Shown: positions 1,138 through 53,962 of the stretch, piece by piece
How positions within the stretch are numbered: position 1 is the first letter of the stretch
Layout: the number at the start of each line of letters is the position of its first letter
Source of the DNA: a virus
Length of the DNA stretch: 54,412 bases
IMG/VR virus record: IMGVR_UViG_3300025168_000113
Location: 1-54,412 of that record
Strand: one strand, 5' to 3'
The notes under the pieces: generated by a model
Told to the model about the DNA's origin: nothing
The model's database searches: none
The model's input: the letters and a program-made list of their open reading frames with translations, nothing else
Position numbers and translations under genes: made by a program

Positions 1138-3258
1138 ATGAATTTAGGTTTAGGAAATACAATACCAATTAATTCAGTTCGTCAAGGCTTAGGTGGCGGC
1201 GGTGGCGGTGGCGGCTTTGACAACACTTATTCCTTAGCCTTCGATGGTGTGGATGATTATGTAGATACAGGCATTTCTACTTTAACTGGAACAGATTTTT
1301 CAATTAGCTATTGGTTTAAAACAACTGCAACACTAACTAATTTTAATTATTATGTACCATTTTCTGCTGTTACAAATCAACAATTTGTTGGAGCTTATTT
1401 GTATTATCACCCAACAACAAAATTAACATTTCGTTCAAGAAATAGTAGTGGTACTTTAGTAAAGGGAACAGTAGATTTATCAGATGGTAATTGGCACAAC
1501 ATAGTAGTAACCTATGATTCAACTTCCTACGCATTAAAAATGTACGTTGATGGTTCTATTGATTATGACGAAACAATTTATTCTTATGCAGTTTTTAATC
1601 AACCTTTATTATTAGGTGGTAAAAGTTCAAGCCTAAATTTAATAGATTGCTCTATTGATGAAGCAAGTTTATTTAATTCTGTTTTAACCTCTGAAAATGT
1701 AACTTCAATTTATAATTCGGGAGTTCCTAACGATATAAGTTCTATAAGTGGTTTAACCGCTTGGTATCGCAACGGTGACAACGGCTCTTACAAATCTCCA
1801 CAGTGGCTCATTCCTAATAATAGTAATGTTGCTAATTCAAGAATATCGAATTATAGTTTTGATTTTGATGGTGTGAATGATTATATAGATACAGGTTCTA
1901 ATCCTTTAATAGGAGAAGGGAATTTATCTATTTCAGCGTGGTTTAAATCTTCAGATGTTGATTTTCAATATTTACTTGGAGATAATAGTTTAAGATTTAA
2001 TATTAAGCAATCCAATGGAGATACAAGAATATCTTTTACAGGTTCAGTTGACCCCTTTAGAGGTTTTGGCGTTTCTTATAGTGTTGGAAATTGGAATAAC
2101 ATTATATTAACATTTGATGGCTCACTTGTTCAAGCAGATAGGTTAAAACTTTATCATAATGGTGTAGAAATAAATAATATTAATGCAGGTACACCAAACA
2201 CAACATTATTGTTAAACACTGCTGCAAATCTTATGATAGGAAGGGCAGGTAGCACTTCATCTAATCCTTGGAATGGCTCTATTGATGAAGTTGCAACTTG
2301 GAATACTACGTTAACTCAAGAAAACATAACTTCAATTTATGGTGGCGGTACACCTTCTGCAATTAGCTCACTTTCACCAATTTCACATTGGAGAATGGGT
2401 GAACAAGCTAACTTTACTTCTAACTGGTTAGTAAACAATTCAGCATTAAGCAACTATTCAACAAGGTCATTTAATTTCGATGGTGTGGATGATTATATAG
2501 ATTTTGGCAATCCAGCAAGTTTACAAATAACAACAGATTTAAGTGTTTCGTTTTGGTTTAAAGGCTCAAGCACAGCCGACCAAGCAATAGTTGCTAAGGA
2601 CGCTTTAGGGCTAAGATGTTGGGGTATTTGGAATAATGTTTTTGGAGCTGGTAACAACTTGCAATTTTATATTTTTAATTCTAATTCTTTAACAGAAGTT
2701 CAAACGTCAGCAAATTATAATGATGGAAACTGGCATAATGTAGTGTGTGTTTTTAAACCTTCTACATATTTAAGAATTTACGTTGACGGTGTTTTAGATG
2801 GAGAAAATACAACATCAATCCCTGCAACTATTGACAATGACGCAGCAAATTTAACAGTTGGAGCAATAGTTTCAAGCGGTAGCCCAATTTATGAATTTGA
2901 GGGGAACGTTGACGAAGTAGCAATTTGGAATAGTGACCAAAGTAGCAACGTTAGTTCTATATATTCGTCAGGTACTCCTTCCGCAATTACAGGTGCAGTT
3001 TCACATTGGAGAATGGGTGAACAAGCAACATTCTCAACTAATTGGAATGTGCCTGATAATGGAAGTGCAAGCAACACAGGAACCTCAGCAAATATGACAA
3101 TAGCAGATTTAGAAGGTGACGCACCTAACTACACAGGTGGTGGCTTATCAAATAATATGACAATAGAAGATAGGGTAGGTGACGCACCTAATAGCACTTC
3201 GAATGCTTTAAGTTACAATATGACTGAAAGCGATAGAGAAGAAAATGTACCAACATAA
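1138..3258 (+). CDS. Adhesin/tail-fibre protein with three LamG (concanavalin-like) domains
   Basis: The 706-residue protein starts with a short N-terminus, a run of eight glycines (about residues 21-28) and then three similar LamG/ConA-like jelly-roll domains, each opening with F-DGV-DY-D-G (about residues 35, 242 and 447) and containing the W-H/N-N-V/I and YVDG/YHNGV strand motifs and a closing ID/VDEVA-WN segment. LamG folds bind carbohydrate, so this is a good candidate for host-surface glycan recognition. After the third domain come three degenerate repeats (NMTIADLEGDAPN, NMTIEDRVGDAPN, NMTESDREENVP). The three domains appear to be internal duplications. It is the largest gene of the right-pointing pre-terminase cluster. 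Confidence 0.7.
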   Translation: MNLGLGNTIPINSVRQGLGGGGGGGGFDNTYSLAFDGVDDYVDTGISTLTGTDFSISYWFKTTATLTNFNYYVPFSAVTNQQFVGAYLYYHPTTKLTFRSRNSSGTLVKGTVDLSDGNWHNIVVTYDSTSYALKMYVDGSIDYDETIYSYAVFNQPLLLGGKSSSLNLIDCSIDEASLFNSVLTSENVTSIYNSGVPNDISSISGLTAWYRNGDNGSYKSPQWLIPNNSNVANSRISNYSFDFDGVNDYIDTGSNPLIGEGNLSISAWFKSSDVDFQYLLGDNSLRFNIKQSNGDTRISFTGSVDPFRGFGVSYSVGNWNNIILTFDGSLVQADRLKLYHNGVEINNINAGTPNTTLLLNTAANLMIGRAGSTSSNPWNGSIDEVATWNTTLTQENITSIYGGGTPSAISSLSPISHWRMGEQANFTSNWLVNNSALSNYSTRSFNFDGVDDYIDFGNPASLQITTDLSVSFWFKGSSTADQAIVAKDALGLRCWGIWNNVFGAGNNLQFYIFNSNSLTEVQTSANYNDGNWHNVVCVFKPSTYLRIYVDGVLDGENTTSIPATIDNDAANLTVGAIVSSGSPIYEFEGNVDEVAIWNSDQSSNVSSIYSSGTPSAITGAVSHWRMGEQATFSTNWNVPDNGSASNTGTSANMTIADLEGDAPNYTGGGLSNNMTIEDRVGDAPNSTSNALSYNMTESDREENVPT

Positions 3259-21784: not shown

Positions 21785-22198
21785 ATGGAATTAAATATAC
21801 GTAGACTTACAGACAAAGACTTTGATACATTAGCTTCGTGGTGGAAGCAATGGCCAGATTGGGAGGTAATGCCTAAAAGTTATTATCCAGAAGATGGCAC
21901 TGGAGGATTTATAGTAGAAAAAGGTGATAAACCTATAGTAGCAGGGTTTGTTTATTTAACGAACTCTAAGGGAGCTTTATTAGAATGGATAGTATCAGAT
22001 CCAGATTACCGTGAAGATGACAGACAGTCAGCGATAGAGCTGCTGATTGATGGATGTGAAAACGTTTGTAAAAGTTTAGGTTATGAATACATGTTTTCAA
22101 TAGGTAGAACAAAGAAATTAATAAATACGCATGAGAAAATGGGATGGCATGTTGATAAAAATCCGTCCTTTGAAATGATAAAAACTTTAAATAATTAA
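21785..22198 (+). CDS. GNAT-family N-acetyltransferase
   Basis: The 137-residue protein has the GNAT layout: N-terminal IRRLTDKDFDTLASWW (beta1-alpha1), central strands GFIVEKGDKPIVAGFVYL and GALLEWIVSDPDYR (motif A strand beta4; the usual Q/RxxGxG/A loop is replaced by DDRQSAIELL), and the C-terminal beta5 region YMFSIGRTKKLINTHEKMGW. Such acetyltransferases are found in the tail/internal-protein region of many podoviruses; the substrate is unknown, and acetylation of a virion or host protein is possible. It sits 5 bases after the tail gene and is followed by the next gene after one base. Confidence 0.7.
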   Translation: MELNIRRLTDKDFDTLASWWKQWPDWEVMPKSYYPEDGTGGFIVEKGDKPIVAGFVYLTNSKGALLEWIVSDPDYREDDRQSAIELLIDGCENVCKSLGYEYMFSIGRTKKLINTHEKMGWHVDKNPSFEMIKTLNN

Positions 22199-24478: not shown

Positions 24479-27400
24479 ATGGCACAAGCATTTAAAAGTT
24501 TACAATTTAATAACCCAACTACTGAAGATAAAAAGAAAAGTAGAAAGGAGAGAAAAAGAAAAGTATTAGAAGATACAGTTAAAGGTGTAAAAGCTAAGAG
24601 CACTCGTAAAGGTACTACATCATATAATACTATGTGGGACAATTTTACTGTAGGAGAAAAAATACAATTAACTTTAGAGGGAAAAGGTAAATGGAGTATA
24701 AACGAGGATGGTAATCCAAACTGGTCTATATTTGGGTCTGGCACACAAGCTTCTGCTAAAGCGCAAGAGAAGTTAACTAAAATAACTGACAGAGAAAAAG
24801 CTAAACAAGAAAGACAAGATAAAAGAACAATAGCTAAAGAAGATTCAGAAGCGTATAAAAAAAGACAGCAAAGCTTAAGTAGTTTTAGTGGTGGTGGATG
24901 GATGGACTCTTCCGCATTAAGTGATTTTCAAAAAAGCAAATTAGATTTAGTGTTATCAGAAGAATTCCCTGATGCTAAAGTTGATGGTAACACTATAGCT
25001 ATAGAAGACGAGGTTTACAACATAGAAGGAATAAGTTTAGTAGATGAAAATAGAGAAAAGAAAGTAGACATACTTAGACCAACTCCTTATGCTGATCCAC
25101 TTGCTACTGGATTAAGACCGGCTTACGTTGAAGAAAAAGGTGGTGGCACTATGAAGCTACCTGATAGATATGACGTTCTGTTAACGAGACAGGATGGTAC
25201 TGGAGTAGTAGTAAATAAATTAGTACTTCCTTTCGTTGATCCTACTGACGAGGGAGAAGAAATACTAGGCGGACTAACGGGTTTTCCGGATGTTGAAATA
25301 CTAAATTTTGAAGATCCTGAGTTAATACAAGAAATTAAAGATGAAACTAGATCAGCTTTAGATAAAACTAATAGTAAAAGAATTCAAAATATATTAATAG
25401 ATAAAGGATTAATAGGAGAGTCGGAAGTTACCATAGAAGGAACCGGAGAAAAGAAATTAGAACCTACTACACAGTATGATATAAGACCAATGGAGAAAAT
25501 CGAAGATGCTCCAGTAAGTATATTGTATAAAAATGGTGCAGCTACTGACCTTGCTAAAGACATAATCAATGGAGATATAGGAGAAAAGAATGCTAAAGAT
25601 ATATTTCAAGAGATATATGGTGATTACGGAGTTACGGTAGAAGAAGGTGGTGATGTTGGAGATGAATTAATATTTAAAATTGGTTCTGAGGAATTAGAAG
25701 TTAATCTAGATGGAGGGATTAAAGAAGCGAAGAGTACAGCTAAAGATGTCCATGACTTTATAAAAGCTAATAGTAGAAAGTCTACATTTGAATCTTATGA
25801 TAAACCAACTATAGCTAACGTAAAAGAACTACAACAAAGGGCTAACGTTATAGCAAATCAAATAGCCGTAGCAAATAAAGAAGCTAAAGACTTATATTAC
25901 AAATATAGTACTGAGTTAGTAGAAATAATTGAACTTATAGTTGAAGATCCTATTAATTCAGTTTCTAGGTTATCAGATTTTTTAGAAAACAATCCAAAGC
26001 TAGAAGAAGCTACTGATACATTTTTAAACGATGTTGAAGAGTTAACTAAAAAGATTGAAATAAAACAAGCTTACTTAAATGATTTAGTTAAAGTTCAGCA
26101 AGAATTAGTTGCTAATTTAATTAAAGCAACAAAACAAGGAATAGATCCTTATACCGGCAAACCTGCTGGCGAAGGTACAATAGCTGGTTTTATAGGTAAC
26201 ACAGCTACAAAAACAGCTGTACAATCAATAGGTGGGGCAGCTACTTCCGCTTTAAGACTTTTAAGTTTATTTGGACCAGCATGGACAGACGAAGGGTCTA
26301 AAGCTGTGGAAGACACAATGCGTGAAATAAGAGGTAACATAAAAGCTTTATCTAATGAGCTTGCTACAGACACTGAAGAAGAATATATAAGAAGATTAGT
26401 AGATGACAGTATAATTGCTGCAGTTGGAGAGCAAGTTACTAGAATGGGTGCTCAATTTGTTCTATCTGGTTTTAACCCATACCTCATGTTTATAGCCATG
26501 ACAGGAGAGATGACTTATCAAAACGAAGAAATAATTGGTATTAATCAAAACATTCCTACACCAGTTAAAGGTGCTACAATATTTTCTACAGGATTAATAG
26601 GTGGTTTATTAGAAAGAGCTGGTTTTCAAAAAATGTTACCTAAATCAACTACTAAAAGAGCTATTCCATGGATACTATCAAAAATTAAAAATAGAAAAGG
26701 TGGGTTTCCAAAAACCCGTCAAGAACTTGCACAAGCAATAGGAGTACAGGTAGAGAAATTAGCTTATGCAGTTCAACAAGGAGGTGAAGCTGCTTTTGTA
26801 GAAACAATTACAGAAGTTGCTCAAGAAGGAGTAAATAAAACAGCTGTAGAAATATTAACAGCAGTGTATGAAGAAGAGGGTGATTCGCCTTTATTTGATT
26901 CGCAATTTAGGTTGTTAAATAATCCTAAGTTGCTAGATCAAATGATAGAAATTATTAAAATATCTGCTGCTACAGGTGGGTTAATGGGTAGTATAGGTGG
27001 TGTTGTAGATTTAAACAGAGAAAATAAACTTAGAAAAATCAACGCAAAAGAGTTTAATAAATTAATGACTTTTGTAAAAGACCCAGCTGCTGTTCAAGCT
27101 TTTGAGATACAAATGGTTCACGACTTAATGAAAGGAGCTTCGTTAGCTGATGTACAAGCAAAAGTTAATTCGCTGAAAGAAATACAAGATTTAATAGAAC
27201 AGATACCTACAAACTTAGATGAAGATACTAAGCAGAAAATATTTTTAAATCTTAAAAAAATAAAAGCTCTTGAAGCTTATATTAGTAAGTATAATGGTAC
27301 ATTAGTAAAAGCTGAAAAACAACAAATAGAAGATCTTAAAAAACAAAATGAAGAGTTAGCTGCTGATCCAGAAAATAGAGGTAAAGATTTAACCTTAGAA

Positions 27401-30400
27401 GAAAGACAAGAAATAGAAAAAGAAACGTTTAAAGAAGATACTAAAAAAGTATCAAAGTCTATTGATTCCTATATAGCTAAACTTAATAAGCAGTTACAAA
27501 AAGTTAAAGGCGCTACTATATTCACTATAGAAACTACAAAGAAAGAAGGTGAAAAAGGTTTTGAAAGATTAAAAGAAAAAATAAAGAAAGAGTATGGCGA
27601 AGATGCCGCTGGAAAAATGAACCCAAATGAGCCAGCTCAAATTATTCAATCACCTTCAGGTAAGTTTAAAAGCTTTATAATAATAAATAAACCTGTATTA
27701 ATTAGACAACCAGTAAATCCATTGGACGTTATTGATCATGAGGTCGGTCATTTCTTGTTTGAGAAAGCGTTGTTGTCTAATCCTGAACTTGCTTCTGAAC
27801 TAAAAAAGTCGTTAAGAGATCATTTGTTAGCGGAAGGAAAAAATGATTTAGTTAAGAAATTAGATAAAAGAATAGATGAAGACTATGTTGAACAAGATAA
27901 AGCAGAGAAAAAATTAGCTGAAGAAGAGGGAAGAGAGTATACTCCAATGACTCAGAGTGATTTTGATGAAGAATGGGTTATGAATTTTATTCAAATGGAC
28001 TCTATACCTGATCCTTCTTTCTGGCAAAAATTGTTAAAATTGTTTAACGATTTAATGGCGACTTTTGGTGTAGCAGAAGATGGAGCTCCGTTATTAGAAA
28101 GTACTGATGGAGAGTCTATATATAATTTTCTAAAAGGAATAAGAGAGTTTGGAGTAAGAGGTGAAGTAAAAATAGATTCTAGTAAAAAGACTGAAGATGT
28201 TGATAAAGATGTTAGCGCAACAAGTAAATCTTCAAAGAAGTTATCTCCTGAACAAAGTAAAACTGTAGAAGAAAGTATATTAGAGTTAAAACAAGAGATA
28301 AAAGAAAATGAAGAAATAGCTGCAAAGTTTGGTAAAGAACCTGTACCTACAGCTAAACAAAGAAGGTTAGAAGAATCAATACTTAAAGATCAGCTTAAAC
28401 CTACTATAGATAGTTTTGTTGAGTCTCAAACTAAAAGGTTATTTGATCCTATAGCACCAGATGCTAGGAACAATGTAACTAGACAAGCGTTTAGAGAGTC
28501 TATGGTTTCAGATATTGAAACTATGATTATTAAAGAGTTTGAACAGAAACAAGATATAGAAAAGTTTATTACTAGTAGAGGTTATTTAAGAGCTAATAGT
28601 CTAGCTAAAAGACTAGGTATTAAAAGCGTAGAGCAAGGTATTGATAAAGACATCGACCAAGCAAAAGGTGTTGCTGCAGAAACTGAAACAATTACTGTTG
28701 ATGAGAAAAAACCTACTAAACAGATTAAGCTTAAGGAAAGATTAGGTAACGATGCTATTGAGATAACCGAAGAAGTTAAAGAACGTGGTAAAGACATTGA
28801 TCTTGAAACTGTAGACTTTAAATCATTAAAAGATCTTACACCTGAAATGACTCAGGAAATGTTTGGTATATCTCCTAAACCTGGCAACTTAAGTAAAGCA
28901 GATGTAAGAAATGCTCAGCAGTTTATATCAAAGCATGCTGACGTGCTAATCGCAATGCTACCTGAAGGATCTACTCCATCTGGCACATCTACCGGTGTTC
29001 AAAAAGTTTTGTTAGATGCTTTTTATACTAAAGGAGATAGAGCAGTAATGGCAAAAACCGGTAGTAAAGCTGGATTACAAGAGCAAACAAAAAGAAATGA
29101 CATAACTAAAGAAGAGTTTTTAGAGTTGTTTGGTATTACCCCTGCGGGTCAGCCAAATATATCTGATAGAAATACTAGTTCTAAAATAAAAGCACTTGTA
29201 GCTCAAACAGGCAGAATGCTTACTAATCAAGCTTTAAGAGAACAAGCTGAAGACACTGGTAAAACAGTACCATCAAAAGTATTTGAAGGTAAAGCTAAAA
29301 CTATGTTTGCTAAAGCAGCAGAAAAAGAAGCTGAAAAATTAATAAACAATAAAAACGTTTTAGAAACTAGTGACGAAGTATTAATAGGAGAAGAACTAAT
29401 TAAAGAAATAGGAACGTGGAGAGGTTTAGTTGACGCTTATAAAGGTGTAGAAGCTTTAGATTTACGAGACGAAAATGATCTTGAAGAATATAAAAACTGG
29501 GTATTAACAGAATTTGCAAAAAGATTACCAAAAGAGTTTTTTAAAGCTGGTTTTTTTAGTGGAGGAAGGCGAACATTAGAAAGCGGTGCTTTAGCTTGGT
29601 TTGGTAAAGAAGATTTTAATAAAAGTATTAAAACGGTTGAGCAGTTTGGAGAGTTTGATCAAGACATTATTAATGCTGCAACAAGAGTTAATGATGGAAA
29701 AATAATTGTAAAAGATTCTAACGGTAAAAACAAAAAAGTTAAGTTTGGAGAAAAAGAATTTACTAAGTTTGCTGATAGTAAATTAAGAGGTTTAAAGAAA
29801 GTATTCGAGATTTTTCAAGATATGATAGTTGACGATCCTCAAAACATTAAATACATTGGTCAATTTTTAAGTAGTACTAGTGCTAACATGTCTCAATTTA
29901 TTCGTGTTGCAGCTCCTTGGAGATTTATGCAACAAAATTTAGAGGGTAAAAAGACTATAGAAGAACACACGTTACCTGTAAGTTTTACAGCTAAATATTT
30001 ATTTGAAAGAGCTATCGAGGAAAATGTAGATGACTATTGGTATGGTATAGAACAGAACTTCTTTCAAGGTTTAATAACTAAAGCTAATGATGATAAGTTG
30101 AAAGACCTGCCAGGTCAACCTAAAAGAAAATTAAGAGACTTTCCTCCTAAAGAACAGGCTTACGATATACTTATAGGTAACGATTCTATTTGGTTAAGAT
30201 ACTTTAATGACTTTGTAAATAACAATAAAAATGGCTTTAATGCAAATGAAATAGTTTTAGAAAACGGAAAAACAATAGCTCAAGAATTTAAAGTTGAAGT
30301 CGATAAAAAGTTCCAACAAGATCCTAACGTTATTCAATTTCAAAACGGTTTAATAGAAAAAGTGCTGTTAGGTGAAGATATAAAATCTCAACAAGAGATG

Positions 30401-33400
30401 GATATTTTTACAGAAAAACTAGCTAAAGAAAAGAAAAAAGCTAATAGCAAAAACAGTTTAAAACTTAAAGATAGTAAAGTAGTTAAAGTAAATGAAAACG
30501 CACCAACATCTGAAAATATAAGAGAAGCAGAAGTACTAGACAAAGCTTTAAATATAGCTCGTGATCCTAATGCTCCAGTTAAAAAGATTAGGGTATTTGA
30601 CTTTGATGATACGTTAGCTAGAACAAAAAGTAATGTATTGTATACTATGCCTGATGGAACTACTGGTAAATTAACTGCTGAAGAGTTTGCTAAGAAAGGT
30701 AGTGAGATGTTAGAGCAAGGAGCGGTATGGGATTTCTCAGAGTTCAACAAGGTAATGGAAGGTAAAGAAGGTCCATTATTAGGAGTTGCTAGATTAATTC
30801 AACAAGCAAGAGGAACTAAAGATGTATTTGTACTTACAGCTAGATCTCAAGAAGCTGCACCAGCTATTAAAGAATTCTTAGATAGTGTAGGGTTAAATAT
30901 ACCTATTGAAAACATAACAGGTTTAGGTGATAGTTCTCCACTTGCTAAATCAAACTGGGTTGTAGATAAAGCAGCTGATGGTTATAATGATTTCTACTTT
31001 GCTGATGATCACATGGGTAACGTAGATGCTGTACAGAAAGCATTAGCAGTAATGGAAGCTAAAGCTAAAGTGCAACAAGCAAAAATCAAATTCAGTCTCA
31101 ATACTAAGCGAGATTTAAAATGGAAAACTATAGGCGGTTCTTTTAACATTGTAGAAGCTGATTTCGAAGTTGATGGAAAAGATTATCAAATTGAAATAAA
31201 GAGAAAAGGCGTTGGACATATTTTTAGTAAATTAGAGGATCACTTTAGTACTTTAGAATTAGCGTTGAACCCTACTAAAGAAATTGCAGATGATAATTTA
31301 AGAGAAAAAGAATTAAGCGGTGGTAAACCTAAAATATTAGATGCGTCTTTTTATAGGATTACAGATAATTTCTACACAGGTATTGAAAAAGACGTTGACT
31401 TAACAGGTGAAGGTAATGCGGCTGAAGTGATATCAATAGTTGTCAACGGCTTGGTGGATAAATATAAGAAAACCAAAGGTGCGCAAGGTGTTACTTTCAC
31501 AGCCTACGAACCAAGCAGAACGAGATTATATAGAACACTAGCTAACATGTTTGGTGAAAAGTTAGGTTTAAAAGTTTTAGAAACAGAATTTGATGGTTCT
31601 GAGACAAGCACTGAATTTTTGTTATTAGATAAAACACTATTTGAAGAAGTTAAAAGAACACCTGTAACAAAGCTCAGCAAACAATCTAAATCAAAAACAC
31701 CTGCGATTAAGTTTAGTTTAAATACTAAACGAGATTTAAAATGGAAACTTATAGAAAAACCAGCTCGTGAAGGTGGAAATGTTCAAGAAGCGCTTTTTAA
31801 AGTCAAAGGTAAAGATTATTTAGTTGATGCAAATGTTGAAAATATTGAAGATCTTTTTTACAAGTTGGAAGACATGGTGGGTATGGAAATGACAGAATCT
31901 GAAGTGGAAGCTGTAAGTAATAAATTAAAAGAAGATAATGATGTTAAACCTAAAATAATTGAAACTTCTTTTTATAGGACTAGAAATCGGCCTTCAGGAA
32001 GAGATGGAAAAGATATTGATTTAACTGGTGAAGGTGACGCTGCTGAGGTACTATCGATAGTTGTTAATGGTTTAGTCGAAAAGTATAAAAATACTGAAGG
32101 TGCACAAGGTATTGCTTTTACATCGTTTGAACCAAGCAGGACAAGATTATATAGAACAATAGCGAACTTATTTGCTAGAAAATTAAATTTAAAAGTTTTA
32201 GAAAAAGAAGGCGACGGTAATTACATTCCAACTGGGTTTATATTGCTAGATAAAAACTTAATTGAAACATTTGAAGAAACGCCTGCGATCAAGTTTAGTA
32301 AACAGTCTAAGCCAGTTCAAACAGTATTAGACGTTGTTGATGTTAAATCTGACGTTCAAAAAGCTAAGACTAAGTTTAGTAAAACTGTGGATCAAGTAAT
32401 GAACACCATTATCTTCCAAAAAACTGGTATTCAACAATATAAAGAATTTGCGGAAGTATCGGCACAAGCTAAAGGTAGAGGAGTAAAGTCGTTTGATTTA
32501 ATACCTCCATCAGCTCAAGACTTTGGAGGGCTATTATATAAGTTACTATCTAAAGGTGAATTAGGTGACAAGCAATGGAAGTGGATGCAAGAGCATTTGA
32601 TTAGACCTTACGGCAGAGCAATGAACGACTTATCTGTGGCTCAGAATCAATTAATGGCTGACTTTAAAGCTTTGAAACAAAGTTTGAGCGGTGTACCTAA
32701 AAACTTAAAGAAAAAAGCTTTTGGTGGATTCACAAATGAAGACGTTGTTCGGATTACTACTTGGGATAGGCAAGGTATAAAAGTTGATGGTATATCCAAA
32801 AGAGATTTAGACGCTGCAAGAGATTACGTAGCAAACAAACCAGATCTCAATAACTTTATTGACCAATTGATTGCTATAACTAAAGGTGATGGTTATTATT
32901 ATCCAGGTAAAAACTGGTTAGCAGGTACTATTACTACAGATTTTAGAGAAGGTTTAAGAAAAGTTGCTAGAAAAAACTTACTTGAACAATGGCAAGAGAA
33001 CGTTGATTTAGCTTTCAATGAAAGCAATATGAATAAAATCGAGGCTGAGTTTGGTCCTAAGTATAGAGAAGCGTTAGAAGACTCTTTACGTAGAATGAGT
33101 ACTGGTCAAAACAGGGCTAAAGGTATGAGCCGTATTGAACAAAGATTTGCTGATTATATAAACAACTCTGTTGGTGCTGTAATGTTCTTAAATGCAAGAT
33201 CTGCGGTGTTACAGACCATATCTGCTGTTAACTTTATAAATTGGAATGACAACAACCCTATGAAAGCTGCTCAAGCTTTTGCTAATCAACCTCAGTATTG
33301 GAAAGATTTCATGAAGTTAATGAATTCAGATTTCTTAGTTGATAGAAGAAACGGTTTAAAGATTAATGTTAGTGAATCGGAAATAGCTGAAGCTGCTAAA

Positions 33401-34477
33401 ACAAGTAAAAATAAAGTTAAAGGAGTAATAGCGTATCTGTTGAATAAAGGTTTTGTATTTACTCAAATTGCTGATAGTTTTGCTATAGCTAGTGGAGGTG
33501 CTACTCTATATAGAAATAGAATTAAAACTTACAAGAAACAAGGTTTGTCGGAAAATGAAGCTATAGAGAAAGCATTCCTTGATTTTAGAGAATTAGCAGA
33601 AGAGTCTCAACAGTCTGCTCGTGCAGATAAGATATCACAGCAGCAAGCTTCAACACTTGGTAGACTCGTGCTTGCATTCGCTAACACACCATCTCAATAT
33701 GCTAGGATAATGGATAAAGCTGGTAAAGATTTAATAGCTGGTAGAGGCGATTGGAAATCTAATATGAGTAAAATCGCTTATTACGGTTTTGTTCAAAACT
33801 TGTTATTTACTACTTTGCAATCAGCATTGTTTGCTTATGGTATGGACGATGACGAAGAAGAAGATGCTAAAGTGTTTCCTGAAAGTAAAATGCTAGACGC
33901 AGCTAATAGCATGGCTGATAACTTATTAAGAGGTATAGGAGTAGGAGGAGTTATATTAGCCCAATCTAAAAATACAATTATAGGTTTAATAAAAAGATCT
34001 GAAAAAGATCCTTACTTTAACCCAGATGCTAGTGGGTTTCCTAAACCAGAATATACTGACGCTGTAGATAAACTTTTAGCTATAAGTCCTCCTGTATCTA
34101 TAAAACTTAGAAAAATAAAAGGTGGTATTACTGATTGGTATTATAATAGATGGAGACCTGAAGCTAGTGAACCATTTAATATAAACAATCCTAACTATAG
34201 AGCAGGTTCTAAAGTCATAGCTGGTGTTAGTAACGTTCCACTTGACAGGTTGTTTCAAAAATTAGAAAATATTCAAGGAGCTTTAGATGCTACAAACCCA
34301 ACTTGGAAAAGAATTTTTATGGCTTTAGGTTGGCCTAAATGGCAGCTTGAAAATGAAAAAGAAAAAGAAGAGAGAAAAGCAAAAGATAAAGCAGAAAGAG
34401 CTAGTATTAAGAAAACACAAAGCGGACCTAAGTTTAAGTCAGCTAATTTTAAAAAAGCTAAATTCAAAACACCGTGA
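24479..34477 (+). CDS. Giant multidomain internal virion protein (zincin, HAD phosphatase, tandem duplicated domain)
   Basis: At 3332 residues this is the largest protein in the window. In order: a charged N-terminal region; hydrophobic/Gly-rich stretches around residues 560-610, 660-700 and 825-850 that could insert in a membrane; a zinc-metallopeptidase motif DHEVGHFLFEK (HExxH, about 1086) with a candidate third ligand in FDEEWVMNF (about 1163); charged helices; a HAD phosphatase domain with DFDDT (about 2041), LTAR (about 2120), SPLAKSNW (about 2155) and FADDH (about 2180); two copies of a domain containing LTGEG-AAEV-SIVVNGLV and EPSRTRLYRT (about 2203-2390 and 2409-2595); and a helical C-terminal domain (about 2640-3332) with RxxxYRxRIKTYKKQGLSENEA-like charge patterns. 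Short K-F/L-S linkers separate the later domains. It is in the T7 gp16 position, so it is probably ejected into the cell. It resembles phage 'polyvalent' proteins; enzyme activities are inferred from motifs only. Confidence 0.75.
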   Translation: MAQAFKSLQFNNPTTEDKKKSRKERKRKVLEDTVKGVKAKSTRKGTTSYNTMWDNFTVGEKIQLTLEGKGKWSINEDGNPNWSIFGSGTQASAKAQEKLTKITDREKAKQERQDKRTIAKEDSEAYKKRQQSLSSFSGGGWMDSSALSDFQKSKLDLVLSEEFPDAKVDGNTIAIEDEVYNIEGISLVDENREKKVDILRPTPYADPLATGLRPAYVEEKGGGTMKLPDRYDVLLTRQDGTGVVVNKLVLPFVDPTDEGEEILGGLTGFPDVEILNFEDPELIQEIKDETRSALDKTNSKRIQNILIDKGLIGESEVTIEGTGEKKLEPTTQYDIRPMEKIEDAPVSILYKNGAATDLAKDIINGDIGEKNAKDIFQEIYGDYGVTVEEGGDVGDELIFKIGSEELEVNLDGGIKEAKSTAKDVHDFIKANSRKSTFESYDKPTIANVKELQQRANVIANQIAVANKEAKDLYYKYSTELVEIIELIVEDPINSVSRLSDFLENNPKLEEATDTFLNDVEELTKKIEIKQAYLNDLVKVQQELVANLIKATKQGIDPYTGKPAGEGTIAGFIGNTATKTAVQSIGGAATSALRLLSLFGPAWTDEGSKAVEDTMREIRGNIKALSNELATDTEEEYIRRLVDDSIIAAVGEQVTRMGAQFVLSGFNPYLMFIAMTGEMTYQNEEIIGINQNIPTPVKGATIFSTGLIGGLLERAGFQKMLPKSTTKRAIPWILSKIKNRKGGFPKTRQELAQAIGVQVEKLAYAVQQGGEAAFVETITEVAQEGVNKTAVEILTAVYEEEGDSPLFDSQFRLLNNPKLLDQMIEIIKISAATGGLMGSIGGVVDLNRENKLRKINAKEFNKLMTFVKDPAAVQAFEIQMVHDLMKGASLADVQAKVNSLKEIQDLIEQIPTNLDEDTKQKIFLNLKKIKALEAYISKYNGTLVKAEKQQIEDLKKQNEELAADPENRGKDLTLEERQEIEKETFKEDTKKVSKSIDSYIAKLNKQLQKVKGATIFTIETTKKEGEKGFERLKEKIKKEYGEDAAGKMNPNEPAQIIQSPSGKFKSFIIINKPVLIRQPVNPLDVIDHEVGHFLFEKALLSNPELASELKKSLRDHLLAEGKNDLVKKLDKRIDEDYVEQDKAEKKLAEEEGREYTPMTQSDFDEEWVMNFIQMDSIPDPSFWQKLLKLFNDLMATFGVAEDGAPLLESTDGESIYNFLKGIREFGVRGEVKIDSSKKTEDVDKDVSATSKSSKKLSPEQSKTVEESILELKQEIKENEEIAAKFGKEPVPTAKQRRLEESILKDQLKPTIDSFVESQTKRLFDPIAPDARNNVTRQAFRESMVSDIETMIIKEFEQKQDIEKFITSRGYLRANSLAKRLGIKSVEQGIDKDIDQAKGVAAETETITVDEKKPTKQIKLKERLGNDAIEITEEVKERGKDIDLETVDFKSLKDLTPEMTQEMFGISPKPGNLSKADVRNAQQFISKHADVLIAMLPEGSTPSGTSTGVQKVLLDAFYTKGDRAVMAKTGSKAGLQEQTKRNDITKEEFLELFGITPAGQPNISDRNTSSKIKALVAQTGRMLTNQALREQAEDTGKTVPSKVFEGKAKTMFAKAAEKEAEKLINNKNVLETSDEVLIGEELIKEIGTWRGLVDAYKGVEALDLRDENDLEEYKNWVLTEFAKRLPKEFFKAGFFSGGRRTLESGALAWFGKEDFNKSIKTVEQFGEFDQDIINAATRVNDGKIIVKDSNGKNKKVKFGEKEFTKFADSKLRGLKKVFEIFQDMIVDDPQNIKYIGQFLSSTSANMSQFIRVAAPWRFMQQNLEGKKTIEEHTLPVSFTAKYLFERAIEENVDDYWYGIEQNFFQGLITKANDDKLKDLPGQPKRKLRDFPPKEQAYDILIGNDSIWLRYFNDFVNNNKNGFNANEIVLENGKTIAQEFKVEVDKKFQQDPNVIQFQNGLIEKVLLGEDIKSQQEMDIFTEKLAKEKKKANSKNSLKLKDSKVVKVNENAPTSENIREAEVLDKALNIARDPNAPVKKIRVFDFDDTLARTKSNVLYTMPDGTTGKLTAEEFAKKGSEMLEQGAVWDFSEFNKVMEGKEGPLLGVARLIQQARGTKDVFVLTARSQEAAPAIKEFLDSVGLNIPIENITGLGDSSPLAKSNWVVDKAADGYNDFYFADDHMGNVDAVQKALAVMEAKAKVQQAKIKFSLNTKRDLKWKTIGGSFNIVEADFEVDGKDYQIEIKRKGVGHIFSKLEDHFSTLELALNPTKEIADDNLREKELSGGKPKILDASFYRITDNFYTGIEKDVDLTGEGNAAEVISIVVNGLVDKYKKTKGAQGVTFTAYEPSRTRLYRTLANMFGEKLGLKVLETEFDGSETSTEFLLLDKTLFEEVKRTPVTKLSKQSKSKTPAIKFSLNTKRDLKWKLIEKPAREGGNVQEALFKVKGKDYLVDANVENIEDLFYKLEDMVGMEMTESEVEAVSNKLKEDNDVKPKIIETSFYRTRNRPSGRDGKDIDLTGEGDAAEVLSIVVNGLVEKYKNTEGAQGIAFTSFEPSRTRLYRTIANLFARKLNLKVLEKEGDGNYIPTGFILLDKNLIETFEETPAIKFSKQSKPVQTVLDVVDVKSDVQKAKTKFSKTVDQVMNTIIFQKTGIQQYKEFAEVSAQAKGRGVKSFDLIPPSAQDFGGLLYKLLSKGELGDKQWKWMQEHLIRPYGRAMNDLSVAQNQLMADFKALKQSLSGVPKNLKKKAFGGFTNEDVVRITTWDRQGIKVDGISKRDLDAARDYVANKPDLNNFIDQLIAITKGDGYYYPGKNWLAGTITTDFREGLRKVARKNLLEQWQENVDLAFNESNMNKIEAEFGPKYREALEDSLRRMSTGQNRAKGMSRIEQRFADYINNSVGAVMFLNARSAVLQTISAVNFINWNDNNPMKAAQAFANQPQYWKDFMKLMNSDFLVDRRNGLKINVSESEIAEAAKTSKNKVKGVIAYLLNKGFVFTQIADSFAIASGGATLYRNRIKTYKKQGLSENEAIEKAFLDFRELAEESQQSARADKISQQQASTLGRLVLAFANTPSQYARIMDKAGKDLIAGRGDWKSNMSKIAYYGFVQNLLFTTLQSALFAYGMDDDEEEDAKVFPESKMLDAANSMADNLLRGIGVGGVILAQSKNTIIGLIKRSEKDPYFNPDASGFPKPEYTDAVDKLLAISPPVSIKLRKIKGGITDWYYNRWRPEASEPFNINNPNYRAGSKVIAGVSNVPLDRLFQKLENIQGALDATNPTWKRIFMALGWPKWQLENEKEKEERKAKDKAERASIKKTQSGPKFKSANFKKAKFKTP

Positions 34478-34830
34478 CAAAAATAAACGAAAACACAGAG
34501 TTAAAGTTAGATCTTAAAACTATTATAAGCATTATAATTATAACAGCTTCTTTCGTTGGCATGTATTTTACCTTGCAATCAGACATTGAAGTAGCTAAGA
34601 CTTTACCACCTAGTCAGATAAATAGAATAGAGTATGATCTTAAACATGAAGCTTACGAAAAAAGACTTGATCAATTAGAAGAGACTGTGGAAATAATATT
34701 TAAACTAGGTATAGAATTAGATAAAGAACTTCACATAATAGATGATGGTTATAATAGTAACATGGAATCTAAAATAAAAGAAGTTGAAGCTAAAATAAAA
34801 GCTACTAATAAGAAAAGAAAAAGAAGATGA
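34474..34830 (+). CDS. Small membrane-anchored coiled-coil protein (GTG start)
   Basis: A 118-residue protein using GTG at 34474, which overlaps the TGA of the giant gene (GTGA). It has one transmembrane segment (about residues 17-33, ISIIIITASFVGMYFTL), then a charged coiled-coil part and a Lys/Arg-rich tail. Similar TM-plus-coiled-coil proteins occur in flavophage genomes; function is unknown, possibly envelope-associated. Confidence 0.6.
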   Translation: MTKINENTELKLDLKTIISIIIITASFVGMYFTLQSDIEVAKTLPPSQINRIEYDLKHEAYEKRLDQLEETVEIIFKLGIELDKELHIIDDGYNSNMESKIKEVEAKIKATNKKRKRR

Positions 34831-35681
34831 AATACTTAAGTATAATACTGTCGTTGTTAATAAGTGTTGCTTATGGCCAGTGTGATAATGGTACAAACTA
34901 TTACCCATCTTTTATATACACGCCATTAGAAGATACTTGGGATTATGCTTCCACTTGTAACTGGGCTGGAGAAGTTATACAGCTTAATGTAAAAGCGGGA
35001 GATACATATGAATTTTCTACATGTGATCAGTATGGTTTTGAGCAAGCCGGTTATGACACACAAATAACTTTATTAGATGGACTAGGTAATTTATTAGATT
35101 TCAATGATGATTACGGTGGATGTGCAGGATATACATCTTATCTTAGATGGGCTGCTCCTTACAGTGGTACAGTGTATTTACATTTAAACGAATACTATTG
35201 TTTAACTAATTTTACATGTACTACAGTTATGATATACCGTACACCTTCATTTGCTTTACCTATAGAATTAATTTCTTTTGATGGTGAAGTATTAGGAGGA
35301 GATATACATCCTTTAGTGATGATTGATTGGGTTGTTGCTTCTCAAGTTAACAATGATTATTATGAAGTACAAAGAAGTGTAGATGTTGAAACTTGGCATA
35401 CAATAAGCACTGTGACAGGAGCCGGGAATAGTAACACCCAAATGTCATACTCTACTTTAGATGATAATCCACTGCATGGAGTTTCTTATTATCGTCTTAG
35501 ACAAACAGATTACGATGGACAAACCGAATCATTTAATCCTATATCAATCATAATCAGTTCAGAAGAAAAGATAATTGATAAAGTGATAAATTTTATGGGG
35601 CAAGAGGTTAATGATAACTATAAAGGAATGGTGTTAGAAATATACCGTGACGGAACTTATGTAAAGAAAAAATACGAATAA
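34827..35681 (+). CDS. Secreted protein with flavobacterial T9SS-type C-terminal region
   Basis: The 284-residue protein has a clear signal peptide (MKYLSIILSLLISVAYGQ, cleavage about residue 17), a Cys-rich PPC-like beta-domain (about 20-135) with EFSTCDQYGFEQAGYDTQIT, and a flavobacterial module: LPIELISFDGEV (about 148), then DWVVASQVNNDYYEVQRS, SYYRLRQTDYDGQTE and a tail VINFMGQEVNDNYKG ... DGTYVKKKYE. The last parts are characteristic of Bacteroidetes proteins exported by the type IX secretion system (C-terminal sorting domain). It was probably acquired from a host gene, and could alter the infected cell surface or be released. It overlaps the preceding gene by 4 bases (ATGA) and the next by 1 base. 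Confidence 0.75.
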   Translation: MKYLSIILSLLISVAYGQCDNGTNYYPSFIYTPLEDTWDYASTCNWAGEVIQLNVKAGDTYEFSTCDQYGFEQAGYDTQITLLDGLGNLLDFNDDYGGCAGYTSYLRWAAPYSGTVYLHLNEYYCLTNFTCTTVMIYRTPSFALPIELISFDGEVLGGDIHPLVMIDWVVASQVNNDYYEVQRSVDVETWHTISTVTGAGNSNTQMSYSTLDDNPLHGVSYYRLRQTDYDGQTESFNPISIIISSEEKIIDKVINFMGQEVNDNYKGMVLEIYRDGTYVKKKYE

Positions 35682-35806
35682 TGGCAACTAAGAGAAAGAA
35701 AAAGAAAATGAAGAACCCATGCTGGAAAGGTTATGAAGCTATAGGTATGAAGAAAAAAGGTGGTAGAAAGGTTCCTAACTGTGTACCCATTAAAAAGAAG
35801 AAATAA
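35681..35806 (+). CDS. Small, very basic protein with two Cys
   Basis: A 41-residue protein beginning MATKRKKKKMKNPCWKG and ending in KKKK. Its ATG shares one base with the stop of the T9SS-type gene, and its stop shares one with the next start (TAATG twice), so it is cotranslated. Cys14 and Cys34 could pair or bind a metal. The charge suggests a nucleic-acid-binding (DNA-condensing) role. A similar basic small gene lies convergently at 36168-36290. Confidence 0.6.
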   Translation: MATKRKKKKMKNPCWKGYEAIGMKKKGGRKVPNCVPIKKKK

Positions 35807-36066
35807 TGAATGATGCTAGCTACGAAAAGTCTAATCGTAAGATGCGATCAGAACATAAAAGAGAAACAGGTAAAACGCTAGGTAAAAGACTTACGTCAGG
35901 TAAGAATAAACGTAGAGTTTCATTTGCTTGTAGATTTGCGGGTATGAAAGGACCTATGAAGAAACCTAATGGTGAACCAACTAGAAAAGCTAGAGCTTTG
36001 AAAAAGTGGGGTTTTGGAAGTGTAGGTGCTGCTAGTAAGTTTTGTAACAGCAATAAAGAAAAATAA
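35806..36066 (+). CDS. Basic hypothetical protein with conserved Cys (DUF6321-like)
   Basis: This 86-residue Lys/Arg-rich protein contains VSFACRFAGMKGPM (about 44-57) and ends with GAASKFCNSNKEK. The pattern (RRVSFACRFAGMKGPMKK, then KKWGF) is one I associate with small DUF6321-type phage proteins; this is from memory and was not searched. It is the last gene of the rightward arm, with the terminator 46 bases beyond. A virion-DNA-binding role is plausible. Confidence 0.55.
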   Translation: MNDASYEKSNRKMRSEHKRETGKTLGKRLTSGKNKRRVSFACRFAGMKGPMKKPNGEPTRKARALKKWGFGSVGAASKFCNSNKEK

Positions 36067-52563: not shown

Positions 52564-52677
52564 AACGAGAGAGAGGATTCGAACCTCTCATGTCTAGAAC
52601 AGTTCAACTAACCACATAAGATTGCTGATGTGTTAAAGGTATCATCTTAATACCAATTAGTTCTACCTGACCTCGCT
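52564..52677 (-). other. tRNA-like relic with intact T-arm
   Basis: On the minus strand GAGAGGTTCGAATCCTCTC (52571-52589) is a perfect T-arm with the universal loop TTCGAAT, followed by UCUCGUU, which can pair with AGCGAGG at 52671-52677 as an acceptor stem (5 canonical pairs plus wobbles). In between, no D arm or anticodon arm of normal spacing can be fitted; a hairpin GGTAT/ATACC lies at 52638-52654. It could be a degenerate tRNA, one with an insertion, or a tRNA-like structure such as an attachment-site remnant. Confidence 0.4.
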
Positions 52678-52682
52678 TTCCA

Positions 52683-52702
52683 AGCTAAGCCGTCACTTAG
52701 CT
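52683..52702. other. Perfect 7-bp hairpin
   Basis: AGCTAAG pairs with CTTAGCT around a 6-base loop in the gene-free stretch between the zinc-ribbon gene and the tRNA-like block. The interval 52678-52759 otherwise holds nothing recognisable. Confidence 0.4.
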
Positions 52703-52759
52703 CCACAGTTGTTCTGCTTCTTCAACATCGCCTGTTGCAAGTATCGCAGTCGTGGTTTA

Positions 52760-52960
52760 TTAGTTATAATACGTCGTCCATATCTCATCTTCTTTCAAAG
52801 ACTTAGTCTTTTTACTTAGATCTTTAACTTCTTCTTCACCGATTAATCGTGGAGTACAGAAGTGACCATCGTCCCATGCTACAATAAATGGTGTAACACC
52901 TTGTGGAGTTTCAAACTTAGATCTACACTGTGGACAAATGTATTTTAATTTCTTTTTCAT
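52760..52960 (-). CDS. Small zinc-ribbon-like protein
   Basis: A 66-residue protein, MKKKLKYICPQCRSKFETP, with CxxC at residues 9-12 and a later HFCTPRL Cys, fitting a partial zinc ribbon. Basic N-terminus. Its start overlaps the upstream gene as ATGA. No specific role. Confidence 0.6.
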   Translation of the reverse strand: MKKKLKYICPQCRSKFETPQGVTPFIVAWDDGHFCTPRLIGEEEVKDLSKKTKSLKEDEIWTTYYN

Positions 52961-53124
52961 GAGATTATAAAGGTTAGACCTTTGTAGTTAAACCAGTGGT
53001 TATACTCTTCAGGTACGTTATTAATTGTAACTCCTTTATAAGTTCTCTTTTCTACTTGACCGTTAATAATTTTAGTTATTGTTACTTTTTTGCGGTCTGC
53101 TGCGTGTGTTTTTATCGTATTCAT
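52957..53124 (-). CDS. Small hypothetical protein
   Basis: A 55-residue protein (MNTIKTHAADRKKVTITKII ... GLTFIIS) rich in Lys and Asn. It is preceded by the fixed-spacing promoter element at 53130-53161, with the start codon 5 bases after GATAATA, and starts ATGAAT like the other three genes so arranged. Overlaps the next gene in ATGA. Confidence 0.6.
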   Translation of the reverse strand: MNTIKTHAADRKKVTITKIINGQVEKRTYKGVTINNVPEEYNHWFNYKGLTFIIS

Positions 53125-53129
53125 ATATA

Positions 53130-53161
53130 TATTATCTATTAGCGTTCGTGTTTAGTTTGTA
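53130..53161 (-). promoter_or_regulatory. Fixed-spacing early promoter candidate (copy 3)
   Basis: Minus strand TACAAACTAAACACGA, 9 bases, GATAATA, 5 bases, then ATGAAT. The first block lies inside the coding end of the upstream gene, in frame with LQTKHER. Confidence 0.65.
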
Positions 53162-53288
53162 ATCTATTAAATTCTCTTTTGTAAGCTTCTTGCAAGTATC
53201 CAGGTAAGTTCTTGTACCAGTTGTAAAATTCTCCACCTTTTACTTTCATCATTGCTTTTTTTATGTATGCGTCATCACTTTTACTCAT
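53139..53288 (-). CDS. Small hypothetical protein
   Basis: A 49-residue protein (MSKSDDAYIKKAMMKV ... EFNRLQTKHER), whose coding end contains the third promoter element. It overlaps the upstream gene by 8 bases. Highly charged and helical; unknown function. Confidence 0.55.
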   Translation of the reverse strand: MSKSDDAYIKKAMMKVKGGEFYNWYKNLPGYLQEAYKREFNRLQTKHER

Positions 53289-53424
53289 CTTTCTTTATTA
53301 GTTTAGCTACTTCGTGACCAAAATCTTGATCATTTGGGTATTTATTTCTTAATTCTCGTACTTGCAACCATCTTAGTTTAGCAATTTTTTCTTCTAAGAA
53401 AAAGTTATCTTTATTATCACTCAT
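53281..53424 (-). CDS. Small hypothetical protein
   Basis: A 47-residue helical charged protein (MSDNKDNFFLEEKIAKLRW ... KLIKKDE). Overlaps neighbours by 8 bases at both ends. Function unknown. Confidence 0.55.
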   Translation of the reverse strand: MSDNKDNFFLEEKIAKLRWLQVRELRNKYPNDQDFGHEVAKLIKKDE

Positions 53425-53596
53425 ATATTTCATTCATTAAACTTGTTATTAAATCTTCTTCTGTTTCTCCATCTTCAAGTACACAGTCGATTTCTACAAA
53501 TTCTTTGACCATGTTGTGGACTTCATTCACTGTTCCATAATTACTTGCGAATCTAAAATGATCTATCGTTTCCTTATTCCAATAAAACTCTTTCAT
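53417..53596 (-). CDS. Small acidic protein
   Basis: A 59-residue acidic protein (MKEFYWNKETIDHFRF ... SLMNEIYE), overlapping the upstream gene by 4 bases in ATGA and the downstream one by 8 bases. Function unknown. Confidence 0.55.
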   Translation of the reverse strand: MKEFYWNKETIDHFRFASNYGTVNEVHNMVKEFVEIDCVLEDGETEEDLITSLMNEIYE

Positions 53597-53796
53597 GCTT
53601 TCAGTATTACTTGAACATAGTCGTAACCTAGTTCATTAGTTTCTTTATTTACTATCCAGTCACCTCGATAGATCTTATCTGCTTGTAGCACTGCGTAAGT
53701 CCACTTCTGATACTCGGTTCCACATCTCTGCTTTTCACCGTAGTATCCTGCCATAATACCTTGTGCTATTTTCTCTATTTTATCTAGTTCACTCAT
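53593..53796 (-). CDS. Small hypothetical protein
   Basis: A 67-residue protein (MSELDKIEKIAQGIMAGY ... GYDYVQVILKA) with a beta-rich C-terminal half and a single Cys. It follows the small membrane-protein gene after 10 bases. Function unknown. Confidence 0.55.
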   Translation of the reverse strand: MSELDKIEKIAQGIMAGYYGEKQRCGTEYQKWTYAVLQADKIYRGDWIVNKETNELGYDYVQVILKA

Positions 53797-53806
53797 ATTA
53801 TTATTA

Positions 53807-53962
53807 TTACTTAGTTATCCAATTAGTTACTTCTACAATTACCCATATGAAAGCTGGTGTCCATATTGATAAGAATACTATAGCTGATACTATTTTTAGT
53901 ACGTTAGCTAATTTAATTTCGAATGCAGACACTTGATCCCACTTATTTGTTGTTTTTTTCAT
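53807..53962 (-). CDS. Small single-span membrane protein
   Basis: A 51-residue protein with a charged N-terminus (MKKTTNKWDQVSAFEIKL) and a transmembrane segment about 22-47 (VLKIVSAIVFLSIWTPAFIW). It overlaps the upstream gene by 20 bases. An early membrane protein, possibly acting on the host envelope; function unknown. Confidence 0.6.
   Translation of the reverse strand: MKKTTNKWDQVSAFEIKLANVLKIVSAIVFLSIWTPAFIWVIVEVTNWITK

What the first reader, a model, noticed from the sequence alone, without database searches (positions are those of the whole stretch)
34827..35681. Phage gene for a secreted protein with flavobacterial type IX secretion features
Seen: signal peptide, Cys-rich beta-domain, and a C-terminal half with LPIELISFDGEV, ASQVNNDYYEVQRS, SYYRLRQTDYDGQTE, then GQEVNDNYKG and DGTYVKKKYE. 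Known: this series is characteristic of Bacteroidetes surface/secreted proteins with T9SS sorting domains. Inference: captured from a flavobacterial host and delivered via the host T9SS, to alter the surface of infected cells or be released. It sits in the late arm at the end of the virion cluster, so expression late in infection is expected.
Basis: partly seen in the sequence, partly recalled or inferred. Interest (0 to 1): 0.8.

Follow-up and report, generated by a model that had tools for sequence, protein, structure and literature searches.

The report
Phage-made protein with host export tag
A marine crAss-like phage carries a conserved gene for a secreted adhesion-type protein that ends in a short export tag otherwise used by its flavobacterial hosts, so the phage probably uses the host's type IX secretion machine to put its own protein on or outside the infected cell; dozens of related phages do the same with different payloads.

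Summary
The gene is real: 284 aa, strong purifying selection (dN/dS about 0.1), same place in about ten related phages. It reads: signal peptide, PPC-fold domain, Fn3-like module, 39-residue tail. The tail is a compact signal those models miss. In Flavobacteriales chromosomes I collected 103 proteins with it: all 103 end in it, on 32 unrelated N-terminal clusters, 28 without the Fn3-like module, nearly all with a signal-peptide-like start; every tail genome tested has SprA. In viral contigs 57 of 57 tails sit at the stop codon. The best evidence is a natural swap: phage proteins 82-84% identical over about 312 residues end either in this tail or in a canonical TIGR04183 domain. Fn3+tail sequences of 15 phages form one clade among bacterial ones; a megaphage has a separate copy. 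Most likely a T9SS cargo that alters the infected cell's surface or surroundings; the surface role is inference. One phage with canonical T9SS cargo was published (Bellas 2020), so this is a new variant of a known kind; in the papers searched I found no description of the short tail.

The parts
34827..35681 (+). Whole gene: phage-encoded secreted cargo protein, 284 aa
34827..34877 (+). Sec-type signal peptide, residues 1-17 (MKYLSIILSLLISVAYG|QC); cleavage site inferred by eye
   Evidence: sequence, hydropathy; same type of start in the closed phage relatives
34878..35252 (+). Payload: Cys-containing beta-sandwich with PPC / collagen-binding-domain fold (residues 18-142)
   Evidence: AF2 model pLDDT 81.7, pTM 0.78; PDB fold matches 5sv5 PPC domain, ColG/ColH collagen-binding domains, PliG; bacterial homologs at 50-55% identity
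35253..35561 (+). Fn3-like linker module LPIELISF...YYRLRQTDYDGQTE (residues 143-245)
   Evidence: bacterial relatives at 40-52% identity
35562..35678 (+). Short C-terminal sorting tail EEKIIDKVINFMGQEVNDNYKGMVLEIYRDGTYVKKKYE (residues 246-284): a GQEV motif resembling motif B of type A signals, then G and a near-invariant Lys
   Evidence: three predicted strands 250-255, 267-273, 278-283
34474..34830 (+). Neighbour in the same operon: 118-aa protein with one predicted membrane segment and charged, coiled-coil-like C-terminus (holin/lysis-like by appearance only)
   Evidence: homologs upstream of the cargo in L004-L010 and L017; weak phrog_937 'hemolysin' E 0.004
35681..35806 (+). Neighbour: 41-aa basic protein overlapping the cargo stop codon (TAATG)
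   Evidence: sequence

Best explanation
The gene encodes a phage-borne cargo of the host's type IX secretion system. The signal peptide would send it through Sec into the periplasm; the short C-terminal tail would then be read by the host T9SS (SprA translocon, most likely with the PorV shuttle because the first half of the tail resembles type A signals), which exports it across the outer membrane. There it is anchored on or released from the infected cell, and its PPC-fold domain (CUB or other modules in related phages) binds something at the cell surface, most plausibly to mask or remodel that surface against competing phages. Shown by computation: architecture, conservation, the tail as a C-terminus-only tag on many unrelated host proteins, swap with a canonical T9SS signal, bacterial relatives of both modules. 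Inferred: actual secretion, PorV use, late timing, surface function.
For: (1) Tail behaves as a sorting tag: 103/103 distinct bacterial ORFs carry it within 10 aa of the stop, on 32 single-linkage N-terminal clusters; 28 lack the Fn3-like module; 75/80 complete ORFs have a hydrophobic start; one genome (G080) has 8 tail proteins with 8 unrelated N-terminal parts. (2) 14/14 tail-bearing genomes tested have SprA, and the five tested carry 79 to at least 150 canonical TIGR04183 proteins. (3) Natural swap: phage protein L312 has TIGR04183 above cut-off while relatives with 82-84% identical payload over ~312 aa end in the short tail; same for L012 and L257. (4) Tail half GQEV aligns with motif B of full type A domains, P = 0.002, 0 of 200 column shuffles as good; Lys near the end is 95% conserved in both bacteria and phages, as is the PorV-contacting Lys of type A domains (PMC10994853); the last 22 residues of HBP35 suffice for GFP secretion (PMC10202324). 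(5) Purifying selection, synteny. (6) Phage clade of 15 with support 100/97 among bacterial sequences. (7) 57/57 phage tails at the stop, with several payloads.
Against: No experiment. TIGR04183, PF18962 and TIGR04131 do not recognise the short tail. The second half of the tail does not match type A domains above chance (35 of 200 shuffles as good). The tail (3 strands) is far smaller than the 7-strand type A domain. All bacterial carriers were found in Bacteroidota, mostly Flavobacteriales, where T9SS is common anyway (154 of 198 sampled genomes), so co-occurrence with SprA is weak evidence. The phage's host is not known. Surface function rests on domain type alone. The tree's root was set at the midpoint.
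Confidence: 0.75

Rival explanations
1. Virion adhesin: the protein is a decoration or fibre of the particle, in the way Ig/Fn3-like domains decorate other phages, and the tail is only its last folded piece.
For: It lies in the virion-gene arm next to the giant ejection-type protein; PPC, CUB and Fn3 folds bind surfaces; in L011/L014/L015 it lies near a homolog of a fibre-like gene.
Against: Signal-peptide start in the closed phage relatives; the same tail ends 103 host proteins that are no virion parts; swap with a bona fide T9SS domain; it is absent from the corresponding place in the relatives Panino and ctfjg026 and found at other places in other phages, so it is not a core particle gene.
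Confidence: 0.07
2. Periplasmic effector: Sec exports it but it stays in the periplasm, for example acting on lysis or cell-wall enzymes; the payload fold resembles PliG lysozyme inhibitors as much as PPC domains.
For: Operon neighbour with a membrane segment and lysis-like look; PliG among top fold matches.
Against: A periplasmic protein needs no C-terminal tag; the payload is swapped for CUB and other modules while the tail is kept.
Confidence: 0.08
3. The tail is only a structural closing strand of the Fn3-like module or a cleavage/anchoring element of another pathway, not a T9SS signal.
For: 75 of 103 host carriers have the Fn3-like module directly before the tail; curated T9SS models miss it.
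Against: 28 carriers lack that module; it replaces canonical T9SS domains one for one in phage and bacterial homologs.
Confidence: 0.08
4. Passenger host gene without benefit, on its way to loss.
For: Host-like modules.
Against: dN/dS about 0.1 and kept across many lineages.
Confidence: 0.02

Closest known systems
T9SS type A sorting domain (TIGR04183 / PF18962)
   Same: C-terminal, behind a Sec signal; GQEV segment resembles motif B; near-invariant Lys close to the end; exchanged with this tail in nearly identical phage proteins
   Different: 39 residues and three predicted strands instead of ~70-100 residues and seven strands; curated models do not match
Phage-encoded T9SS cargo of 'Cryophage' (Bellas et al. 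2020, PMC7468147)
   Same: Phage genes with host T9SS signals, proposed to be exported by the host; also suggested to act in superinfection exclusion
   Different: Cryophage has canonical type A domains on an endoglucanase, a GH39 and a PA14 protein; here a short tail on PPC, CUB and other modules, conserved in a crAss-like podovirus lineage
T9SS sorting-domain proteins near BACON proteins in some gut phage clusters (PMC6949934)
   Same: Bacteroidota phages, T9SS domains near structural genes
   Different: Different payload; canonical domain; only noted in passing there
Pre-peptidase C-terminal (PPC) domain, PF04151 / PDB 5sv5
   Same: Payload fold
   Different: Sequence score below the Pfam cut-off

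Membership tests
T9SS type A sorting domain (TIGR04183) | Score above the curated HMM cut-off | tested here: not met
   No match for the window protein at E 10; only L012 of 16 aligned relatives matches
T9SS type A sorting domain (TIGR04183) | Position at the extreme C-terminus behind a Sec signal | tested here: met
   103/103 bacterial and 57/57 phage tails at the stop; 75/80 complete bacterial ORFs with hydrophobic start
T9SS type A sorting domain (TIGR04183) | Conserved motifs and near-invariant Lys near the end | tested here: inconclusive
   Motif B half matches (P 0.002), D/E half does not; Lys 95% conserved
T9SS type A sorting domain (TIGR04183) | Seven-strand Ig-like beta-sandwich | tested here: not met
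   AF2 model: three strands in the tail
T9SS type A sorting domain (TIGR04183) | T9SS- and PorV-dependent export | not testable with these tools
   Needs a secretion assay
T9SS type B sorting domain (TIGR04131) | HMM match | tested here: not met
   No match at E 10
Functional class: T9SS cargo (any signal) | Signal occurs on many unrelated secreted proteins of T9SS-bearing genomes | tested here: met
   32 N-terminal clusters; SprA in 14/14 genomes
Functional class: T9SS cargo (any signal) | Exchangeable with a known T9SS signal in close homologs | tested here: met
   L312 versus L227/L226/L314, payload 82-84% identical
PPC domain (PF04151) | HMM above gathering score | tested here: not met
   13.7 bits against 25.9
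PPC domain (PF04151) | PPC / collagen-binding beta-sandwich fold | tested here: met
   Foldseek E 6.6e-5, probability 1.0 to 5sv5, TM 0.54-0.62; PliG scores equally

The most novel reading that the evidence does not exclude
The short tail is an undescribed compact class of T9SS sorting signal of Flavobacteriales, and marine Bacteroidota phages have repeatedly taken it over to display swappable adhesion modules (PPC, CUB and others) on the cells they infect, as a common phage strategy to control the infected cell's surface.
Probability: 0.5. Interest if true: 0.75.

Novelty: new variant of a known kind. Interest (0 to 1): 0.62.

Why it matters
If true, phages of Bacteroidota commonly export their own proteins through the host's T9SS, and annotation pipelines miss most of these proteins because the tag lies outside the curated T9SS models. 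It also gives a compact natural signal with which to ask which part of a T9SS signal is really needed, a question the literature leaves open (PMC10202324), and a marker that narrows host prediction for many marine viral contigs.

Tried and rejected
Curated families: no match for the window protein in NCBIfam, only sub-threshold PPC in Pfam and nothing useful in PHROGs. PDB by sequence: none for the protein; the A4 profile hits only designed 'SAKe' proteins and A2 nothing significant, taken as uninformative. Cultured phages: tblastn finds only four uncultured megaphage records. Lipoprotein reading rejected (residues before Cys are Y-G-Q). Full-length fold search is dominated by multi-domain GH2 enzymes at TM below 0.3: not taken as an enzyme hint. 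Global hhalign of tail to full domain failed. Phylum-wide tail search found only G001 (1 of 198), against 45/80 in its family (E 1e-3) and 66/199 in its order: the tail is lineage-restricted. A self-BLAST for repeats in the giant protein returned nothing.

Full report
WHAT IS THERE. Residues 1-17 form a Sec-type signal peptide (MKYLSIILSLLISVAYG|QC; cleavage inferred, not a lipobox). Residues 18-142 hold all six cysteines and model as a beta-sandwich (pLDDT 81.7, pTM 0.78) whose best solved-fold matches are PliG lysozyme inhibitors and PPC / collagen-binding domains (5sv5, E 6.6e-5). Residues 143-245 are an Fn3-like module common in Bacteroidota secreted proteins. The last 39 residues form a three-strand tail. 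The gene overlaps its neighbours by 4 and 1 bases, in the plus-strand arm that holds the terminase large subunit and portal (PHROGs), a P22-like portal domain and a crAss muzzle domain (Pfam). The arm ends at 36066, where the minus-strand arm with ribonucleotide reductase and a Toprim/DnaB-type replication protein begins.

THE PHAGE FAMILY. Seventeen viral loci encode relatives. In L001, L002 and L004-L010 the gene follows the giant 3332-aa-type protein; in all of these except L010 the convergent ribonucleotide reductase follows it, and in L013 the cargo is inverted relative to the giant protein. In L011, L014 and L015 the same C-terminal part lies elsewhere in the genome, upstream of the homolog of window gene 279-725, behind a CUB-type N-terminal part (Pfam CUB in two aligned members, best E 1.9e-9). 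dN/dS is 0.09-0.11 among the window gene, L001 and L002. The corresponding place in Maribacter phage Panino (a tRNA cluster) and in the annotated region of ctfjg026 shows no such gene, and tblastn of the protein finds no cultured phage. The gene is therefore a conserved accessory gene, not a core particle gene.

IS IT A T9SS SIGNAL? By curated models, no: TIGR04183 and TIGR04131 do not match the window protein. By behaviour, yes. In genome contigs the Fn3-like module is followed either by a full type A domain of about 85 residues or by this short tail. A tail profile (A3) finds it in 45 of 80 genomes of one family (E <= 1e-3) and 66 of 199 of its order (E <= 1e-5), but in only 1 of 198 genomes sampled over the phylum, that one being the genome the search was centred on. 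E-values are per genome. I extracted 103 distinct tail-bearing ORFs: all 103 have the tail within 10 residues of the stop; their N-terminal parts fall into 32 clusters; 28 lack the Fn3-like module; 75 of 80 complete ones have a hydrophobic start; genome G080 has eight with eight unrelated N-terminal parts. All 14 tail-bearing genomes tested have SprA and the five tested have 79 to at least 150 canonical type A matches. An element that recurs only at the extreme C-terminus of otherwise unrelated exported proteins is what a sorting tag looks like.

THE SWAP. Phage protein L312 is 82-84% identical to short-tail proteins (L226, L227, L314) over about 312 residues of payload, but ends in a canonical domain scoring above the TIGR04183 cut-off. 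L012 and L257 show the same at about 60% payload identity. So the short tail stands where a recognised T9SS signal stands in near-identical proteins. This is the strongest computational evidence for equivalent function.

RELATION TO KNOWN SIGNALS. Aligned to full type A domains, the GQEV half matches their motif B (P 0.002; 0 of 200 column shuffles as good) but the second half does not (35 of 200 shuffles as good). A Lys near the end is conserved in 95% of bacterial and phage tails; type A domains have a near-invariant Lys near the C-terminus that contacts PorV (PMC10994853), and the last 22 residues of HBP35, holding motifs D and E, suffice to export GFP (PMC10202324). A compact signal is thus plausible. 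I do not file the tail under TIGR04183, because the score and the seven-strand fold were tested and not met; I say that it works like one.

ORIGIN. In a tree of the Fn3+tail region, 15 phage rows form one clade (100/97) inside bacterial short-tail sequences, and a 635-kb megaphage (LR745206) lies apart, suggesting a second capture (midpoint root, short alignment). The payload has chromosomal relatives at 50-55% identity in small Flavobacteriales genomes. A profile scan of viral contigs gives 120 relatives, 80 kept; among 71 distinct ORFs 57 have the short tail, all at the stop codon, and 12 a full domain, on several payload clusters. IMG/VR contigs may include some cellular sequence; the window's own lineage is clearly phage.

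HOW IT PROBABLY WORKS. Late transcription with the virion genes (inferred from strand and operon), Sec export, recognition of the tail by the host T9SS (inferred), then display or release, with the beta-sandwich payload binding glycan or protein at the surface (inferred from fold only). Exclusion of competing phages is the use I think most likely, because payloads vary while the export signals stay; Bellas et al. proposed the same for their phage.

NOVELTY. Phage-encoded T9SS cargo was reported once as a unique occurrence (Bellas et al. 2020, PMC7468147) and noted in gut phages near BACON proteins (PMC6949934). New here: a compact tail missed by the curated models, its tag-like distribution in host genomes, the natural swap with a canonical signal, and its spread over dozens of marine phage contigs. 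I did not find the tail described in the papers searched, but subscription papers are not in that library.

Noticed in passing
window 24479-34477: Giant 3332-aa virion-arm protein with what look by eye like two copies of a ~190-residue domain beginning IKFSLNTKRDLKWK, and an embedded HAD-like motif RVFDFDDTLAR near residue 2037 (position computed); a self-BLAST at E 1e-3 returned no repeat, so the duplication is unconfirmed.
   Followed up: partly
window 1138-3258: Fibre-like protein with three Laminin_G_3 (concanavalin-like) domains upstream of the terminase.
   Followed up: no
window 21785-22198: Small GNAT-looking acetyltransferase inside the virion gene cluster; no Pfam match at 1e-3, but the phage ctfjg026 has an ORF annotated as an acetyltransferase subunit in a similar position.
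   Followed up: no
L203 (LR745206.1): A 635-kb uncultured megaphage encodes an Fn3-like module plus the short tail (tail E 3.5e-17); its N-terminal part is not in the same frame, perhaps a sequencing error.
   Followed up: partly
L019, L020, L027: Tandem chromosomal genes for ~345-377-aa proteins ending in the short tail in Flavobacteriales, with a first domain (GLYDYSQ...WENRDGSW) that resembles the extra ~180-residue domain of the longer phage homologs.
   Followed up: partly
window 52592-53942: Early-arm stretch without any ORF of 70 aa or more; holds several minus-strand ORFs of 49-67 codons.
   Followed up: no
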